A stretch of 64,000 nucleotides of DNA from Curtobacterium luteum. Lineage in GTDB: Bacteria; Actinomycetota; Actinomycetes; Actinomycetales; Microbacteriaceae. The notes beneath the pieces are model-generated. The model was not told where the DNA came from. It saw nothing but the letters and a program-made list of their open reading frames with translations, and searched no databases. Position numbers and translations under genes: made by a program. Numbering within the stretch: position 1 is the stretch's first letter; every line of letters begins with the position of its first letter. Location: assembly GCF_001475545.1 (NCBI RefSeq), contig NZ_LDQC01000060.1, positions 1-64,000 of the forward strand, in the 5' to 3' direction. Shown here piece after piece: positions 7,726-12,478 of this stretch.

Positions 7726-8397
7726 TCAGGTGCGGAGCTCGGTCCGCACGGGCTTGAGCCGCTCCGGGGCGTCCGTCGCAGGGGTCCACTCGCACGTGAA
7801 CGTCCCGCGGTACCCGAAGAGGAACCCGAACACCCGGTTGTGCACCTCGAGGTCGACGTGGAACGCCTCGTCCTCGTCCGACCACCACTCGTGCAGGGTT
7901 GCCCGTCCACTGAAGAGCATCGGGAAGCGGAAGGCGATCGGCCCCTCGTAGAAGCGCTGCGCGTCGGACCGCAGCACGAGACCGCCGCGCTCATCGACCG
8001 AGAGGTCGAGGTCAACCGCCAGGTGCTGGTGCGATCCGAGGTAGTCGAGCACCCGCCCCTCGACGAGCACCATCGTCGCGTCGAACCGCGCTGTCCTGCC
8101 GGGCTTCGTCGTGTAGGTTCGCACGAAGGTCACCGTCTCGCGGCCGAAGCGGTCGCGGTACGGGTAGTTCTCGATCGTGAACGGCACGTCCGTCCCGACG
8201 TCGGGCACGAGGATGTTCCGCAGCCGACCGATCTGCAGGAACGGCACCGTCCACCACGGACCGCGACGGATCGACGCCATCACCCCACGCCCGGTGCACG
8301 CCTCGGCCGCGTCGAGTCCGACGCCGAACCGGCGCTGCATCATGGGGTGGAGCCGTTGGAAGTCGGCGCCGAGCGCCGCTTCGAAGACGGATGTCAC
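7726..8397 (-). CDS. DUF4166 family protein
   Basis: A 223-residue protein matching the DUF4166 pattern: FEAALGADFQRLHPMMQRRF at the N-terminus, ACTGRGVM at about residues 34-41, and VPFTIENYPYRD and FVRTYTTKPGR mid-protein. The family is found alone or fused to reductases; biochemical function unknown. The GTG at 8397 overlaps the preceding stop (GTGA). It is the last gene of a four-gene operon with an SRPBCC protein, a BLUF-like/TetR fusion and an RsbU-like phosphatase. Confidence 0.8.
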   Translation of the reverse strand: MTSVFEAALGADFQRLHPMMQRRFGVGLDAAEACTGRGVMASIRRGPWWTVPFLQIGRLRNILVPDVGTDVPFTIENYPYRDRFGRETVTFVRTYTTKPGRTARFDATMVLVEGRVLDYLGSHQHLAVDLDLSVDERGGLVLRSDAQRFYEGPIAFRFPMLFSGRATLHEWWSDEDEAFHVDLEVHNRVFGFLFGYRGTFTCEWTPATDAPERLKPVRTELRT

Positions 8398-9023
8398 GAG
8401 CGGCCTCCCGGATCGGGGAGCGCTGCCAGCGTGGATGGAGCGTCGTGCAGGTGGTCGGCTCGTCGGGACCCGCCAGCGGGTGCACGGAGCGCCCTGGAGG
8501 CACGGGGCCGGTTCCGGCGCCAGGGCTGCAGTACCGAGGTGAGCGGCCACGCCTCCGGCTCGCCCCCGCCTTCGAGCCAGACGCGGAGCCGGTCGAAGCT
8601 CCAGGCGGTCGCCCAGCCCAGGAGCGGCCGGACGACGAGGTCGAGCGGACCCCAACCGCTCGCGTAGTCGTACCCGGTGATGAACCGTGTGCGGCCGTCC
8701 TCGGTGGGGACGTACCGCCAGTACCCGCGACCGGTACGGATCGGTGACAGCGGGTCCGCGGTCGAGAAGCGGAGCGCAGAGGTCCGGGAGCCGTCCGGAC
8801 GTCGGCGCTCGCCGATGCTCACGCCGGTGCCGTGGACATCGTGCACCGGGGACCGTCGGACGTAGGTGAACCGCACCGCGGTGTCGACGGTGTCGCGCTC
8901 CGGCACGATCTCGGAGAACCGGACGTCCCACCGCACGTGCTGTGTCGGGTCCTGCGTCGCCGCCCAGACCCGCTCGATGTCCGCCGCGATCACGGTCTCG
9001 ACGTAGATACCCCGGTTCCTCAC
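8394..9023 (-). CDS. SRPBCC (START/polyketide-cyclase-like) protein
   Basis: A 209-residue protein. The first 150 residues fit the helix-grip SRPBCC fold (GIYVETVIAADIERVWAATQ, then RGYWRYVP and FITGYDYASGWGPLD), which builds a hydrophobic ligand cavity. The final 55 residues are Arg/Ala/Pro-rich and partly derive from the dispersed motif at 8491-8505. The GTG at 9023 is preferred over GTG 9035 because it gives a GTGA overlap with the upstream gene, matching the other junctions in this operon. Ligand unknown; lipids or pigments are typical for the superfamily. Confidence 0.75.
   Translation of the reverse strand: MRNRGIYVETVIAADIERVWAATQDPTQHVRWDVRFSEIVPERDTVDTAVRFTYVRRSPVHDVHGTGVSIGERRRPDGSRTSALRFSTADPLSPIRTGRGYWRYVPTEDGRTRFITGYDYASGWGPLDLVVRPLLGWATAWSFDRLRVWLEGGGEPEAWPLTSVLQPWRRNRPRASRALRAPAGGSRRADHLHDAPSTLAALPDPGGRS
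8491..8505 (+). repeat. dispersed 20-base motif, copy in SRPBCC gene
   Basis: GCCCTGGAGGCACGG, plus orientation, inside the disordered 3' part of the SRPBCC coding region. Confidence 0.55.
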
Positions 9024-10027
9024 GACGCTGTCCACCCTCGTCGGAGTCGGTCGGCGGCACGGGCGAACGTCTCCGCGACGTCCGGCTCCGGGTCGAAGAG
9101 GTTCTGGATGCGCAGCCCGTCGAACAGGGCCAGGAGCTGCTGCGCTCCGACGCCCGGGTCGAGGGTCGCCGGGAGACGGCCGACCGCGACGTCCTGCTCG
9201 AGTGCGAGCCGGATGCCGTCGCGGAAGGCGCGGTAGCTGACCAGGAAGTCGCCCCCGGCTGGTTCCCCGGGATCGGCGGCCGGGGCGAGCGCCGCGACGA
9301 TGAGCCGGTCGAGTGCTGGCTCAGCGGCGAACGCGACGACCAGCGCGCGCAGCCACGGCACCGTGCCCTCCGCGCGTGCGACGGGTGCCAGCGGCGCGGT
9401 CACCTGGTCGAGCCAGGTCGCGAGCGTGGCGGCGAGGAGCGCCGGCATCGTCGGGAAGTTCGCGGTCACGGTGTCGCGCGGGAGCCCCGCCCGCTCGGCG
9501 ACGGCGTCGAGGGACGAACGGGTGGGACCGACGTCGCGAAGCACGTCGATCGATGCCCGGAGCACGCGGTCGCGGACGGGCGCGGTCGACCGGCGGGTCG
9601 AGAGCTGTTCCGGCGGCGTCCGTCGGAACCACTCGAGCAATGCCCGCGACCGCGAGGTGTCGGCCGCGGGGTCGGGCGCGCGGTCCTCGGCGAAGAGGTC
9701 CTCGAAGCCGTCCATCGACCGCACGGCCGGGTCGTCCGTGCGGAACGCCATCGACCAGTCGGGGAACGTCCGCTCCTCGATCGGGTCGTCGAGGAGGACC
9801 TGGACGTCGACGTTCGCCGGATCGGACGCGACCTCGTGCACCCGTGCACGCACGACGTCGTCCGGTCCCTCGACGACGCCGAGGACGTTCGCGTCGTCGA
9901 GCGCGAGGACACCGGTGATCCCGAGCTCCGCGTTCCTGGCCCGTTCGACCGCCAGCAGGCGGACGAGGTCGTCGTGGCTGAGGCGCCCCGTCCGGGCAAC
10001 CGTGAAGACGATGGTCGAGAGGGTCAT
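9020..10027 (-). CDS. BLUF-like domain fused to a TetR-type DNA-binding domain
   Basis: A 335-residue two-domain protein. Residues 1-100 align without gaps to cyanobacterial PixD-type BLUF domains: ARNAELGITGVL, the EGPDDVV loop and WSM. Asn32, Trp91 and Met93 are kept, but Phe8 replaces Tyr8 and Gly50 replaces Gln50, the two residues needed for the flavin hydrogen-bond switch. After a linker, residues 151-200 read as a TetR helix-turn-helix (SSLDAVAERAGLPRDTVTAN) followed by an all-helical ligand/dimer domain. It may sense something other than blue light, or bind flavin without photochemistry. ATGA overlap upstream, GTGA overlap downstream. Confidence 0.8.
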   Translation of the reverse strand: MTLSTIVFTVARTGRLSHDDLVRLLAVERARNAELGITGVLALDDANVLGVVEGPDDVVRARVHEVASDPANVDVQVLLDDPIEERTFPDWSMAFRTDDPAVRSMDGFEDLFAEDRAPDPAADTSRSRALLEWFRRTPPEQLSTRRSTAPVRDRVLRASIDVLRDVGPTRSSLDAVAERAGLPRDTVTANFPTMPALLAATLATWLDQVTAPLAPVARAEGTVPWLRALVVAFAAEPALDRLIVAALAPAADPGEPAGGDFLVSYRAFRDGIRLALEQDVAVGRLPATLDPGVGAQQLLALFDGLRIQNLFDPEPDVAETFARAADRLRRGWTAS

Positions 10028-10818
10028 CGGTCGAGCGCTCCGTCGGTGGTCGAGGATCGGGTCGATGCCCGGTCACGGGCAGGGTCCCGGCGGATCGCGA
10101 CGACGGTGAGGTCGTCGGTGATGGTCTCCGGGACCGTGCGGAGGAACGTCTGGAGTCCCTCGGACAGCGACCGCTCCTGCGCGAGCCGTGCCGCGAGGTC
10201 GGTCAGTGTGCCGAAGCTCGCGTCCGGGAGTTCGAGGATGCCGTCGGACGCGACGACGAGGACGTCGCCCGGGCCGAGGTCGAGGTGCCGGGGCAGTCGC
10301 GCGAACCCCCGGGGCTGCAGGCCGACGGGGAGGTCCACCGACGGGATGCGCACGGTCTCGCCTCCCGCGTGGGCGACCGCTGCGAAGCCGTGCCCGGCAT
10401 CGATGAACTCGACCGAGCCGTCGTGCAGTCGGATCCGGGCGTGGAACAGGGTCGCGAACGCAGCCGCCCGTTCCAGGCGGGAGCGCACGGCGTTCTCGGC
10501 GCCCTCGACGGTCACGGCCGGTGCCTCGCGGGCCAGGGCGTCGATCGTGCCGAGCAGGTGCGCGGCCAGGAGCCCGGCGGGGACGCCCTTGCCCATGACG
10601 TCCCCGAGCGTGATCGTCGCGGTGCGCCCGTCCGGCCCGACCGAGACGTCCGCGAGGTCGCCGGACACGTCGGACGCGGCCCGCCAGACGTGTGCCGCCG
10701 TCCATCCGGGGATCGTCGCGGTCGTCCTGGGGAGGAGCGCGGCCTGCACGGCACGCAGCCGACCGTCACGGTCGAGACCGGCGTCCTCGTCGTCGTACAC
10801 GTCCTGCAGGGAACCCAC
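10024..10818 (-). CDS. PP2C-type phosphatase, RsbU/SpoIIE family
   Basis: A 264-residue Mn-dependent serine/threonine phosphatase domain without an attached sensor. RAVQAALLP opens the domain; GDVMGKG, DAGH, ASDGI and TDDLTVVAI are the metal-binding motifs. Family members dephosphorylate anti-anti-sigma factors and so switch on partner sigma factors. It is the first gene of an operon with the BLUF-like/TetR fusion, which suggests a sensor-output pair. No anti-sigma partner is visible here. The GTG start is 6 bases from a TAGGTT box. Confidence 0.85.
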   Translation of the reverse strand: MGSLQDVYDDEDAGLDRDGRLRAVQAALLPRTTATIPGWTAAHVWRAASDVSGDLADVSVGPDGRTATITLGDVMGKGVPAGLLAAHLLGTIDALAREAPAVTVEGAENAVRSRLERAAAFATLFHARIRLHDGSVEFIDAGHGFAAVAHAGGETVRIPSVDLPVGLQPRGFARLPRHLDLGPGDVLVVASDGILELPDASFGTLTDLAARLAQERSLSEGLQTFLRTVPETITDDLTVVAIRRDPARDRASTRSSTTDGALDR

Positions 10819-10824
10819 TCCCGC

Positions 10825-10830
10825 AACCTA
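10825..10830 (-). promoter_or_regulatory. leaderless -10 box of the phosphatase/BLUF operon
   Basis: Minus-strand TAGGTT, 6 bases before the GTG at 10818. It is the only promoter-like element seen for the four overlapping genes down to 7726. Confidence 0.5.
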
Positions 10831-10854
10831 CCGTGCGGCGTGTCCAGGATGCGC

Positions 10855-10890
10855 GGGAGCGGCGCCCGGGAGGGCCCGGACGCCGCTCCC
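10855..10890. terminator. GC-rich hairpin after the CU044_5270-type gene
   Basis: GGGAGCGGCG and CCGGG arms pair with CCCGG and CGCCGCTCCC around a short loop. It lies between the stop at 10902 and the phosphatase gene start, in the right place to end the sigma-factor operon. Confidence 0.6.
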
Positions 10891-10901
10891 GCGCTCGGCG
10901 C

Positions 10902-11900
10902 TCAGTCCGCGGGGACGCTGTCCACCACGGACGTCGTCACCGCGGACGAGTCGAGGACCGTCCCCTTCGGGAGTACCCGGCTCGCCGAGCCGGTCAACGT
11001 CCGCGACCCGAGGTACGCACCGGTGTCGGGGTCGATCACGATCTCCGAGTGCTCCCCGTCCCGGTTCGGCTCCTCCCGGCCGATCGCCGTCCCGGTGCGC
11101 CCGTCGAGCGTCACCGCGTCGTGGGTGATCGTCGTCCCGGGGATCTTCGCGAGCACCTCGTACATCGCGCTGCGGAGGTCCGCCGGCACGAGCCCGGTGG
11201 CGAGGTCGTCGGAGATCAGCGTCGTCATCGCCTCCTCGTGGCTCACGGAACCGGTGGCGTGCTCCGACACCCACGTGTACAGCTCGTCCGGGTCCCGCGG
11301 CATCTCGGTCAGGTGGGCCGGCCTCCAGTCCGAGTACCCCTCGAAGCGGCCGCCGGCTCCGTGCAGCGTCTCGGTCGGGTACGGCGACCCTTCGCGCTTC
11401 CACTCTGCGGCCGCCTCGGTCGCGGACGCGGCAGGGAAGAACCGCGTCGGTTCGCCGGACGCGCGCACGAGCGTCCACTCGGCAGACACGTCAGCAGGTC
11501 GGTAGACGGTGACCGTGTACGGCACGAGCGCGGAGTACTCGTTCGCGTCGCCGAAGAACCCCTGACTCTCCCGTTTCGTCGACACCTCGAGGTACTGGCC
11601 GGGCCCGACGGTCGGGTCGCTCGCCAGGACGGTCTCGTCGGCGGCCTTGTGCAGGACCTCGGCGGCGGTGGCGGCCTGCGGGTGCGACCCCACGACGGGT
11701 ACGCGGTCCGTGGTGCCGGTGAGGTTCCCACCGACGATCACGGTCGCGAGGGCGGTGACCGCTGCGACGGACCCGACCGCTCCGAAGGTCCAGCGGGAGC
11801 GGCGACGACGACGGTGCACGGTGCGGTCGAGCACCGCACGTCGGATCGGACGGATGGCTTCGTCGAGGGCGGCGCCCTCGGGCGGCGGTGCGGTGATCAC
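10902..11900 (-). CDS. CU044_5270-type membrane protein, sigma-factor partner
   Basis: A 332-residue protein. An N-terminal cytoplasmic part with ALDEAIRPIRRAVLDR and a run of arginines is followed by one membrane helix (about residues 42-62) and a large extracytoplasmic domain. The architecture and the four-base overlap with the upstream ECF sigma gene resemble actinobacterial CU044_5270-type proteins, which often sit beside ECF sigma factors. An anti-sigma role is inferred from context; no zinc-binding ZAS motif is seen. Confidence 0.7.
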   Translation of the reverse strand: MITAPPPEGAALDEAIRPIRRAVLDRTVHRRRRRSRWTFGAVGSVAAVTALATVIVGGNLTGTTDRVPVVGSHPQAATAAEVLHKAADETVLASDPTVGPGQYLEVSTKRESQGFFGDANEYSALVPYTVTVYRPADVSAEWTLVRASGEPTRFFPAASATEAAAEWKREGSPYPTETLHGAGGRFEGYSDWRPAHLTEMPRDPDELYTWVSEHATGSVSHEEAMTTLISDDLATGLVPADLRSAMYEVLAKIPGTTITHDAVTLDGRTGTAIGREEPNRDGEHSEIVIDPDTGAYLGSRTLTGSASRVLPKGTVLDSSAVTTSVVDSVPAD

Positions 11901-12478
11901 AGTGTCTGCTCCATCTCGTGCAGCGCGCGGCTCGACCTCAGCTTCGCGCGGGACCGTTGGATGCGCTTGCGCGCGTTCGTGGTGGTGAGGCCGAGCATCG
12001 CGGCGGCCTCGTCGTAGGACCGGCCCTGGAGCAGGCAGAGCTCGCAGAGTTCCCGGTCGGGTGAGTCGAGCGCGGCGATCTCCGCGCGGACCCACCGCAG
12101 CTGCTGGACGGCCTCGTCGTGTGCGACCTGGCGGTACCAGGCCTCGGACGCGCCGCTGTGCTCGTCGACCTCGTCGGTGCGGGTGGACCGTCGCTGCCGG
12201 TTCGCGTTCATCGCCACGAACCGCGTCGTGGTCAGCAGCCACGGCAGTGCAGACGCACCGACGACTCCGATGTCCTTCCGCCGGCGCCACGCGACGAGGA
12301 ACGTCTCCTGGACGATGTCGTCGACGTCCGACCGTTCGTCGGCGAGCCCCCACGCGTAGCGGAAGACCGCCCGCGAGTGCCGGTCGAGCAGCGCGGTGTA
12401 CGCCTCGCCGTCGCCCGTCGCGACGGCGGCGACGAGTGCTGTGTCCGGGACGGTGCCCGGCCCCCTTGGTGTGTTCAC
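11897..12478 (-). CDS. ECF RNA polymerase sigma factor
   Basis: A 193-residue group 4 sigma factor. Region 2 is seen in RYAWGLADERSDVDDIVQETF with LVAWRRRKDI, and region 4 in YDEAAAMLGLTTTNARKRIQ. The GTG at 12478 is chosen because GGAGG lies 5 bases upstream; no ATG is available nearby. It is translationally coupled (GTGA) to a membrane protein that probably holds it inactive. The target promoters cannot be told from here. Confidence 0.87.
   Translation of the reverse strand: MNTPRGPGTVPDTALVAAVATGDGEAYTALLDRHSRAVFRYAWGLADERSDVDDIVQETFLVAWRRRKDIGVVGASALPWLLTTTRFVAMNANRQRRSTRTDEVDEHSGASEAWYRQVAHDEAVQQLRWVRAEIAALDSPDRELCELCLLQGRSYDEAAAMLGLTTTNARKRIQRSRAKLRSSRALHEMEQTL

What the first reader, a model, noticed from the sequence alone, without database searches (positions are those of the whole stretch)
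9020..10027. BLUF-like domain lacking Tyr8 and Gln50, fused to a TetR-type regulator
Residues 1-100 align without gaps to PixD-type BLUF domains in the same numbering: Asn32, Trp91 and Met93 are kept, but Phe8 and Gly50 replace the Tyr and Gln that drive the flavin hydrogen-bond switch. Residues 151-200 are a TetR helix-turn-helix. I know of no described BLUF-TetR fusion. If it folds, it is a BLUF scaffold turned to a different signal (flavin redox state, another ligand) or a structural relic that still controls DNA binding.
Basis: partly seen in the sequence, partly recalled or inferred. Interest (0 to 1): 0.8.

Follow-up and report, generated by a model that had tools for sequence, protein, structure and literature searches.

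The report
Light-sensor domain stripped of light chemistry
A bacterial gene-regulator-like protein carries a blue-light-sensor domain in which the parts needed for light sensing have been swapped out, and its relatives share part of that change, yet the domain is still kept by selection, so it probably now senses or does something else.

Summary
On the minus strand (10027..9020) a 335-aa protein joins a real BLUF fold to a TetR-like fold, with Phe8 and Gly50 for Tyr8 and Gln50. It is not a lone variant but one of a BLUF-TetR family seen only in Curtobacterium and two unnamed Microbacteriaceae records. Gly50 is found in 62 of 62 fused sequences; Gln50 in 111 of 111 unfused BLUFs in hand. Tyr8 is kept in 52 of 62; those 52 share a new Cys48 in an otherwise intact flavin site. 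The window's clade also lost Cys48, Arg71 and His72, so flavin binding is doubtful, but the BLUF part evolves under purifying selection. The gene overlaps a SpoIIE-type phosphatase whose 11 closest relatives in 66 genomes of the genus, itself included, all lie beside BLUF-TetR genes. The architecture is in print ('BLUF+AcrR', C. luteum, 335 aa); I found no account of the missing residues. Most likely the domain is now a light-decoupled interaction module; a flavin redox or photoreduction sensor remains possible, above all in the Cys48 clades. New variant of a known kind.

The parts
9020..10027 (-). BLUF-TetR fusion gene, 335 aa
9746..10015 (-). BLUF domain (residues 5-94)
   Evidence: PF04940 66.7 bits on the genome, 63.4 bits on the protein; fold match
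10004..10006 (-). codon of Phe8 (Tyr in photoactive BLUFs)
9884..9886 (-). codon of Val48 (Phe in most BLUFs, Cys in 52 of 62 BLUF-TetR sequences)
9878..9880 (-). codon of Gly50 (Gln in photoactive BLUFs)
9596..9745 (-). BLUF C-terminal cap and linker (residues 95-144), including a helix (SRSRALLEWFRR) like that ending the unfused sister BLUF
9029..9595 (-). TetR-like helical domain (residues 145-333); sub-threshold HTH match at residues 156-200
10024..10818 (-). SpoIIE-type (PP2C) phosphatase, 264 aa, no other domain found, 4-bp ATGA overlap with the BLUF-TetR start; beside it in 7 of 7 clade members
8394..9035 (-). SRPBCC-like protein (Polyketide_cyc2 23.8 bits, under its cut-off 27.4) overlapping the 3' end of the fusion gene by 16 bp; linkage seen only in the window genome and its near twin G255

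Best explanation
Supported by sequence: a short BLUF gene fused, most simply once, to a TetR-like gene in one actinobacterial genus. All fused proteins seen have Gly50; the window's clade also lacks Tyr8, Ser10, Phe/Cys48, Arg71 and His72, while its BLUF part stays under purifying selection. The gene overlaps and follows a SpoIIE-type phosphatase whose subtype, in 66 genomes of the genus, was seen only beside BLUF-TetR genes. Inferred: the domain cannot run the BLUF hydrogen-bond photocycle and, in this clade, binds flavin weakly or not at all. It works as a fixed protein-protein module (dimerisation, docking, perhaps a permanently 'lit-like' shape) that couples the TetR-like body to a partner, most likely the co-encoded phosphatase. 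The input would come from that partner or from the TetR ligand pocket; the output is either transcription or control of the phosphatase. Which output is not established.
For: Gly50 in 62 of 62 unique fused sequences against Gln50 in 111 of 111 unfused. All 10 Phe8 sequences also lack Cys48 and His72. BLUF omega 0.11-0.32 in five clade pairs, and 39 of 91 BLUF columns invariant in six clade members whose BLUF parts are 64-80% identical to the window's. Confident BLUF fold. Removal of the Gln prevents signalling-state formation (PMC3915823, one passage); Q50A/Q63E are cited as locked pseudo-lit (PMC6695109, passages). [quoted passage not shown] the mapping to 8, 48 and 72 is mine); all three are replaced here. 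The 11 best SpoIIE hits in 66 genomes (213-554 bits, the window's own included) lie next to a BLUF-TetR gene, the next scores 147. One fusion: BLUF tree SH-aLRT 95, TetR tree 89 (quick trees).
Against: Asn32, Asp69, Trp91 and, in 4 of 7 clade rows, Met93 remain, so flavin binding is not excluded. No interaction with the phosphatase was shown. Pocket columns in the clade are not significantly more conserved than the rest (random draws reach it with frequency 0.13). Between clades the BLUF part can diverge more than the TetR body (A-D identity 0.30 against 0.49 for the TetR C-terminal part). DNA binding is unproven and the HTH is divergent.
Confidence: 0.45

Rival explanations
1. The domain still binds flavin and senses light or redox state by reduction of the flavin to the neutral semiquinone, as Tyr-less BLUFs and Cys-less LOV domains do.
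For: PMC4682037 (passages) cites that removal of the conserved Tyr lets a BLUF photoreduce to the semiquinone, which then regulates a cyclase with inverted polarity, and shows that the natural Cys-less LOV domain of Bat, a protein with an HTH module, binds flavin and changes shape on reduction. Asn32, Asp69 and Trp91 are kept in 7 of 7 clade rows. A crystal structure of TePixD Y8F, the same change at residue 8, is among the fold matches.
Against: The clade also lost Ser10, Phe/Cys48, Arg71 and His72, which are nearly fixed in unfused BLUFs.
Confidence: 0.25
2. The pocket was rebuilt for another small ligand that drives the TetR-like body.
For: Columns 8, 32, 48, 50, 66, 69 and 72 are invariant in six clade members, several as a new residue; the two beta3 residues at 48 and 50 became smaller.
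Against: Excess conservation of the pocket is not significant (0.13), and clade A/B differences are not concentrated there (Fisher p 0.65); no ligand candidate; a TetR body normally has its own ligand pocket (recalled).
Confidence: 0.15
3. Structural relic: the BLUF half is decaying and only the TetR half matters.
For: Long branches of the two Phe8 clades (1.09 and 1.29); loss of flavin contacts; lower BLUF scores in the four clade A and D members scanned (50-63 bits) than in the four clade B and C members scanned (84-93 bits).
Against: Purifying selection of similar strength in BLUF and TetR parts of the clade; high-confidence fold; full-length matches without stops in 7 of 7 clade members.
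Confidence: 0.1

Closest known systems
Short BLUF photoreceptors (PixD/Slr1694, Tll0078/TePixD, AppA BLUF, BlsA), PF04940
   Same: Fold, gapless numbering, Asn32, Trp91, Met93; the unfused sister gene (L195, L196) keeps Tyr8, Phe48 and Gln50
   Different: Tyr8, Gln50, Phe48, Arg71 and His72 replaced; fused to a TetR-like domain; no BLUF photocycle expected (inferred)
'BLUF+AcrR' of Curtobacterium luteum, WP_058726129.1, 335 aa (Table 4 of PMC8508746, after Kaushik et al. 2019)
   Same: Architecture and length, and the genus of the nearest named relatives; may be this very protein or its ortholog (record not available to me)
   Different: Listed only as an architecture with a predicted role; the missing Tyr and Gln, the Cys48 clades and the phosphatase partner are not mentioned in the passages seen
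Natural Cys-less LOV domains, e.g. Bat (PMC4682037, passages)
   Same: A flavin photoreceptor fold that lost its photochemical residue and sits in a protein with an HTH module
   Different: Unrelated fold; Bat-LOV* was shown to bind flavin and respond to reduction, nothing of the kind is shown here
TetR/AcrR family regulators (FadR, QacR, TtgR, EthR2 by fold)
   Same: Helical TetR fold, Z 16-18.3
   Different: Divergent HTH, below the Pfam cut-off in this protein; extra BLUF domain in front

Membership tests
BLUF domain (PF04940) | Profile match above curated cut-off | tested here: met
   63.4 bits against 25; 66.7 on the genome
BLUF domain (PF04940) | BLUF fold | tested here: met
   Model mean pLDDT 89.2; rmsd 1.4-2.0 A to TePixD and Slr1694 chains
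BLUF domain (PF04940) | Tyr8 and Gln50 of the photoswitch | tested here: not met
   Phe8, Gly50; Gln50 absent in 62 of 62 fused sequences
BLUF domain (PF04940) | Asn32 that holds the flavin ring | tested here: met
   Asn32 invariant in 58 of 58 aligned fused proteins
BLUF domain (PF04940) | Bound FAD and light-induced red shift | not testable with these tools
   needs purified protein
TetR/AcrR regulators | TetR_N (PF00440) match above cut-off | tested here: inconclusive
   21.0 bits against 24 for this protein; 1 of 7 other members scanned passes (L183, 33.0), 2 of 7 show no match at E 0.05
TetR/AcrR regulators | TetR C-terminal domain match (TetR_C_6, cut-off 27) | tested here: inconclusive
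   23.7 bits here, under the cut-off; 7 of 7 other members scanned pass, 27.1 to 35.5
TetR/AcrR regulators | TetR helical fold | tested here: met
   Helices at 145-333; Z up to 18.3, rmsd 2.8 over 179
TetR/AcrR regulators | Sequence-specific DNA binding | not testable with these tools
   HTH divergent; no operator shown
Photoactive BLUF light sensor | Able to form the red-shifted signalling state | not testable with these tools
   Gln removal prevents it (PMC3915823 passage); inferred absent here

The most novel reading that the evidence does not exclude
The BLUF-TetR family is a new class of flavin sensor that gave up the Tyr-Gln hydrogen-bond switch. In its main clades Tyr8, a single invariant Cys48 near the flavin, Gly50 and His72 form a new site that works by thiol-flavin redox or photochemistry (a Cys-flavin bond, a thiol radical pair or a covalently held flavin). 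The window's clade is a descendant in which this site was dismantled and control passed to the co-encoded SpoIIE-type phosphatase.
Probability: 0.25. Interest if true: 0.82.

Novelty: new variant of a known kind. Interest (0 to 1): 0.6.

Why it matters
The Tyr-Gln pair is treated as the core of a BLUF sensor; one published census requires both letters in its search pattern (PMC4844311, passage), so families like this one would be skipped. Here is a natural family (62 distinct sequences over the BLUF and cap stretch), with an unfused Tyr/Gln sister in the same genus, in which the switch residues are gone while the fold is kept. That lets one ask what a BLUF domain does for its output domain without the photocycle, and whether Cys48 gives it a different flavin chemistry.

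Tried and rejected
Rejected: sequencing variant or pseudogene (second genome and 7 of 7 clade members agree; omega under 1; one cell, TetR C-terminal part of the pair with G255, is 0.78 but rests on 3 changes). Rejected: 'never described' architecture. Not settled: whether Tyr8 was lost once or twice; the free tree puts clade D with clade C (92/80), but holding A and D together is not rejected (AU p 0.42; 0.30 with outgroups). Not settled: whether Cys48 is ancestral to the fused family; the rooted tree puts the window clade first, but long branches meet there. Not significant: extra conservation of pocket columns in the clade (0.13) and concentration of clade A/B differences in the pocket (Fisher p 0.65). 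Led nowhere: the upstream element of clade B was not found in the window (1 hit with one mismatch, 3.8 expected by chance), and its strict form gave only sites before BLUF-TetR genes (10 sites in 66 genomes), so no regulon. The inverted repeat near 10830 was not followed.

Reach of the negative survey: searches (199 family genomes, four of them of the genus; 396 phylum genomes) scored at most 10 and 5 candidates per genome, and one search listed only its best rows; outside the genus no listed row covers both halves, except that G167 (60-333) and G166 (6-215) do so partly by reading through a stop. The second look at fold matches listed TetR chains only; BLUF chains were seen.

Subsets used: searches used 35 of 58 BLUF-TetR rows, with 56 of the 79 unfused rows whose alignment reached Tyr8; one search used 29 of 58; one search used 48 of 58; one search left out the near-copy L114; one search looked at about 336 aligned residues, not at the last residues of longer members. 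In some searches unfused BLUFs were not covered at residue 8 by the local alignment and say nothing on Tyr8. Gene neighbours come from a gene finder of my own.

Full report
WHAT IS THERE. The gene lies on the minus strand, 10027 to 9020, 335 aa. Residues 5-94 match BLUF (63.4 bits, cut-off 25); the C-terminal part matches TetR_N and TetR_C_6 just under their cut-offs in this protein. Of 7 other members scanned, 7 pass TetR_C_6 and 1 passes TetR_N. The match to Slr1694/PixD is gapless over residues 1-97, so residue 8 is Phe where BLUFs have Tyr, and residue 50 is Gly where they have Gln; Asn32, Trp91 and Met93 are kept. AlphaFold2, with a 103-row alignment, gave a confident model (mean pLDDT 89.2; pTM 0.56, so the placing of the two halves is unsure) with a BLUF fold and TetR helices. 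Foldseek pairs the first half with TePixD and Slr1694 (1.4-2.0 A over 88-98 columns) and the second with TetR regulators (Z up to 18.3).

A FAMILY, NOT A VARIANT. A scan of species genomes found 35 BLUF-TetR loci (one cut by a contig end), 33 in records named Curtobacterium and two in records named Microbacteriaceae bacterium. In the window's genus (66 genomes) 45 have a BLUF-TetR match at E below 1e-50, one of them (G257) only over residues 4-234; seven genomes have the window's own clade. Outside the genus none was seen in the rows listed for 199 family genomes or 396 phylum genomes, within the limits told under Tried and rejected. BLUF itself is rare in the phylum sample (10 of 396, the window's genome included) but present in 64 of 66 genomes of the genus. 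The window's genome has five BLUF genes; the other four keep Tyr8 and Gln50.

WHICH RESIDUES CHANGED. Among 173 unique BLUF domains in hand, Gly50 is found in 62 of 62 fused to TetR and Gln50 in 111 of 111 others (first count 58 of 58 and 95 of 95). Of the 62, 52 are identical at ten positions: Tyr8, Ser10, Asn32, Cys48, Gly50, Asp69, Arg71, His72, Trp91, Met93; against the commonest unfused pattern (82 of 111) only 48 (Phe to Cys) and 50 (Gln to Gly) differ. Cys48 is the only cysteine of the aligned 336 or so residues in 36 of the 48 aligned proteins that have it, in a family with 0.13% cysteine elsewhere; the window protein has none. The other 10 have Phe8, and all 10 also lack Cys48 and His72: the window's clade A (7: Phe8, Val48, Gly50, Ala/Gly71, Asn72) and clade D (3: Phe8, Ala48, Gly50, Tyr72, Ala93). 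So Tyr8, Cys48 and His72 are kept or lost together, as one expects if they make one working site. These counts are of sequences, not of independent events; the loss may have happened once or twice.

ORIGIN. BLUF-TetR rows form one side of a branch in the BLUF tree (SH-aLRT 95) and in the TetR tree (89), so one fusion is the simplest reading. The nearest unfused BLUF in that tree (L170, the same gene as L195; L196 is its copy in G237) comes from genomes without the fusion (G238, G237). It is a 137-aa short BLUF with Tyr8, Phe48 and Gln50, ending in a helix (SRGRALVEWFRKRP) that resembles the linker of the fused proteins. It also carries an upstream element (CCCGAAGGCGGGGCTTG, then TTCACT) like that before many fused genes of clade B: 29 of 41 clade B rows, and 31 of 57 rows in all, have TT[CG]AC[TC] within 75 nt of the start, against 1.2 in shuffles (related rows, so not independent). 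The fused gene therefore probably kept the promoter and cap helix of a short BLUF of the photoactive type.

SELECTION. In five pairs of clade A the BLUF part has omega 0.11-0.32; the TetR parts of the four wider pairs have 0.18-0.35, and the pair with the near twin G255 has too few changes to weigh. In the large Cys48 clade B the BLUF part is the most conserved region (mean identity 0.84) and the HTH the least (0.64). This speaks against a relic. Against it stands that between clades the BLUF part diverges strongly (A-D 0.30, A-C 0.37).

PARTNER. The fusion gene overlaps by 4 bp (ATGA) the end of a SpoIIE-type phosphatase in which no other domain was found (SpoIIE 106.8 bits). The 11 best matches to it in 66 genomes (213-554 bits, itself included) are all next to a BLUF-TetR gene: seven upstream on the same strand in clade A (0-45 bp between aligned parts), four divergent in clade C (426-489 bp); the next match scores 147 bits (also 24, 37; the clade C one is SpoIIE at 82 bits). 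In seven genomes (G200, G204, G205, G211, G241, G250, G251) a TetR relative without BLUF lies tail to tail with a different SpoIIE-type gene (read by eye, whose lists are capped). The link between this TetR branch and SpoIIE-type phosphatases may thus be older than, or independent of, the BLUF. The SRPBCC-like and DUF4166 genes downstream were linked only in the window's genome and its near twin G255.

HOW IT LIKELY WORKS. From the literature, removal of the Gln prevents formation of the signalling state (PMC3915823, one passage), Gln mutants have been described as locked in pseudo-lit states (cited in PMC6695109, passages), and in AnBLUF65 the Tyr, a Phe and the His of D-x-R-H form the aromatic cluster at the flavin (PMC9020721, passages; mapping to 8, 48 and 72 is mine). 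In the window protein all of these are replaced. I therefore infer a BLUF fold without photocycle and with little or no flavin, kept as an interaction or dimerisation module for the TetR-like body and its phosphatase partner. The main rival is flavin reduction as the signal: a Tyr-less BLUF can photoreduce to the semiquinone and still control its output domain (cited in PMC4682037, passages). The rival is stronger for the Cys48 clades, whose flavin site is otherwise intact.

WHAT IS KNOWN. Table 4 of PMC8508746 lists Curtobacterium luteum WP_058726129.1 as 'BLUF+AcrR', 335 aa, taken from Kaushik et al. 2019 (passages; the source is not held). The architecture is thus in print. Ten searches for BLUF-TetR names, the missing residues or related mutants listed nothing on the loss; only titles, abstract starts and the passages named were seen, the longest lists were shown in part (25 of 224, 25 of 82), and only open-licence papers are held. 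A BLUF census used a pattern that demands both Tyr and Gln (PMC4844311, passage) and would not see this family.

LIMITS. Flavin binding, DNA binding and partner binding were not tested. That position 48 faces the flavin rests on PMC9020721 and my mapping, not on measured distances.

Noticed in passing
L061, L042, L179, L183 and other Tyr8-bearing fused proteins, residue 48: An invariant cysteine, most often the only one, replaces Phe48 in all Tyr8-bearing BLUF-TetR sequences (52 of 52); a lead of its own.
   Followed up: partly
L195:2974-3104 and upstream of clade B genes such as L059, L065, L066, L068, L069: Upstream element of the form CCCGAAnGnGGGGYTTG or GGGGTTG, then TTCACTCG; a strict form found at 10 sites in 66 genomes, each just before a BLUF-TetR gene. 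Promoter or operator unknown.
   Followed up: partly
window 10851-10894: Strong inverted repeat (20-nt arms, 95% complementary, 4-nt loop) between the 332-aa gene and the phosphatase gene; terminator or operator unknown.
   Followed up: no
window 10902-12478, minus strand: Sigma-70-type factor gene (Pfam regions 2 and 4) followed by a 332-aa gene without Pfam match at E 0.05, upstream of the phosphatase; the same pair precedes the phosphatase in L173 and L177.
   Followed up: partly
L193:2700-4661, L194:2779-4740: A TetR relative, an ECF-type sigma factor gene (opposite strand) and a short canonical BLUF lie side by side in two genomes that lack the fusion.
   Followed up: partly
L187-L189: Clade D fusion genes are followed at once by a TetR-only gene (overlap of 4 bp in L187).
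   Followed up: no
genus-wide: BLUF genes are unusually many in this genus: 64 of 66 genomes, two to seven each, against 10 of 396 in the phylum sample.
   Followed up: no
seven genomes, e.g. G211:C1:1115304-1116814: TetR relatives without BLUF lie tail to tail with another SpoIIE-type gene (by eye).
   Followed up: partly
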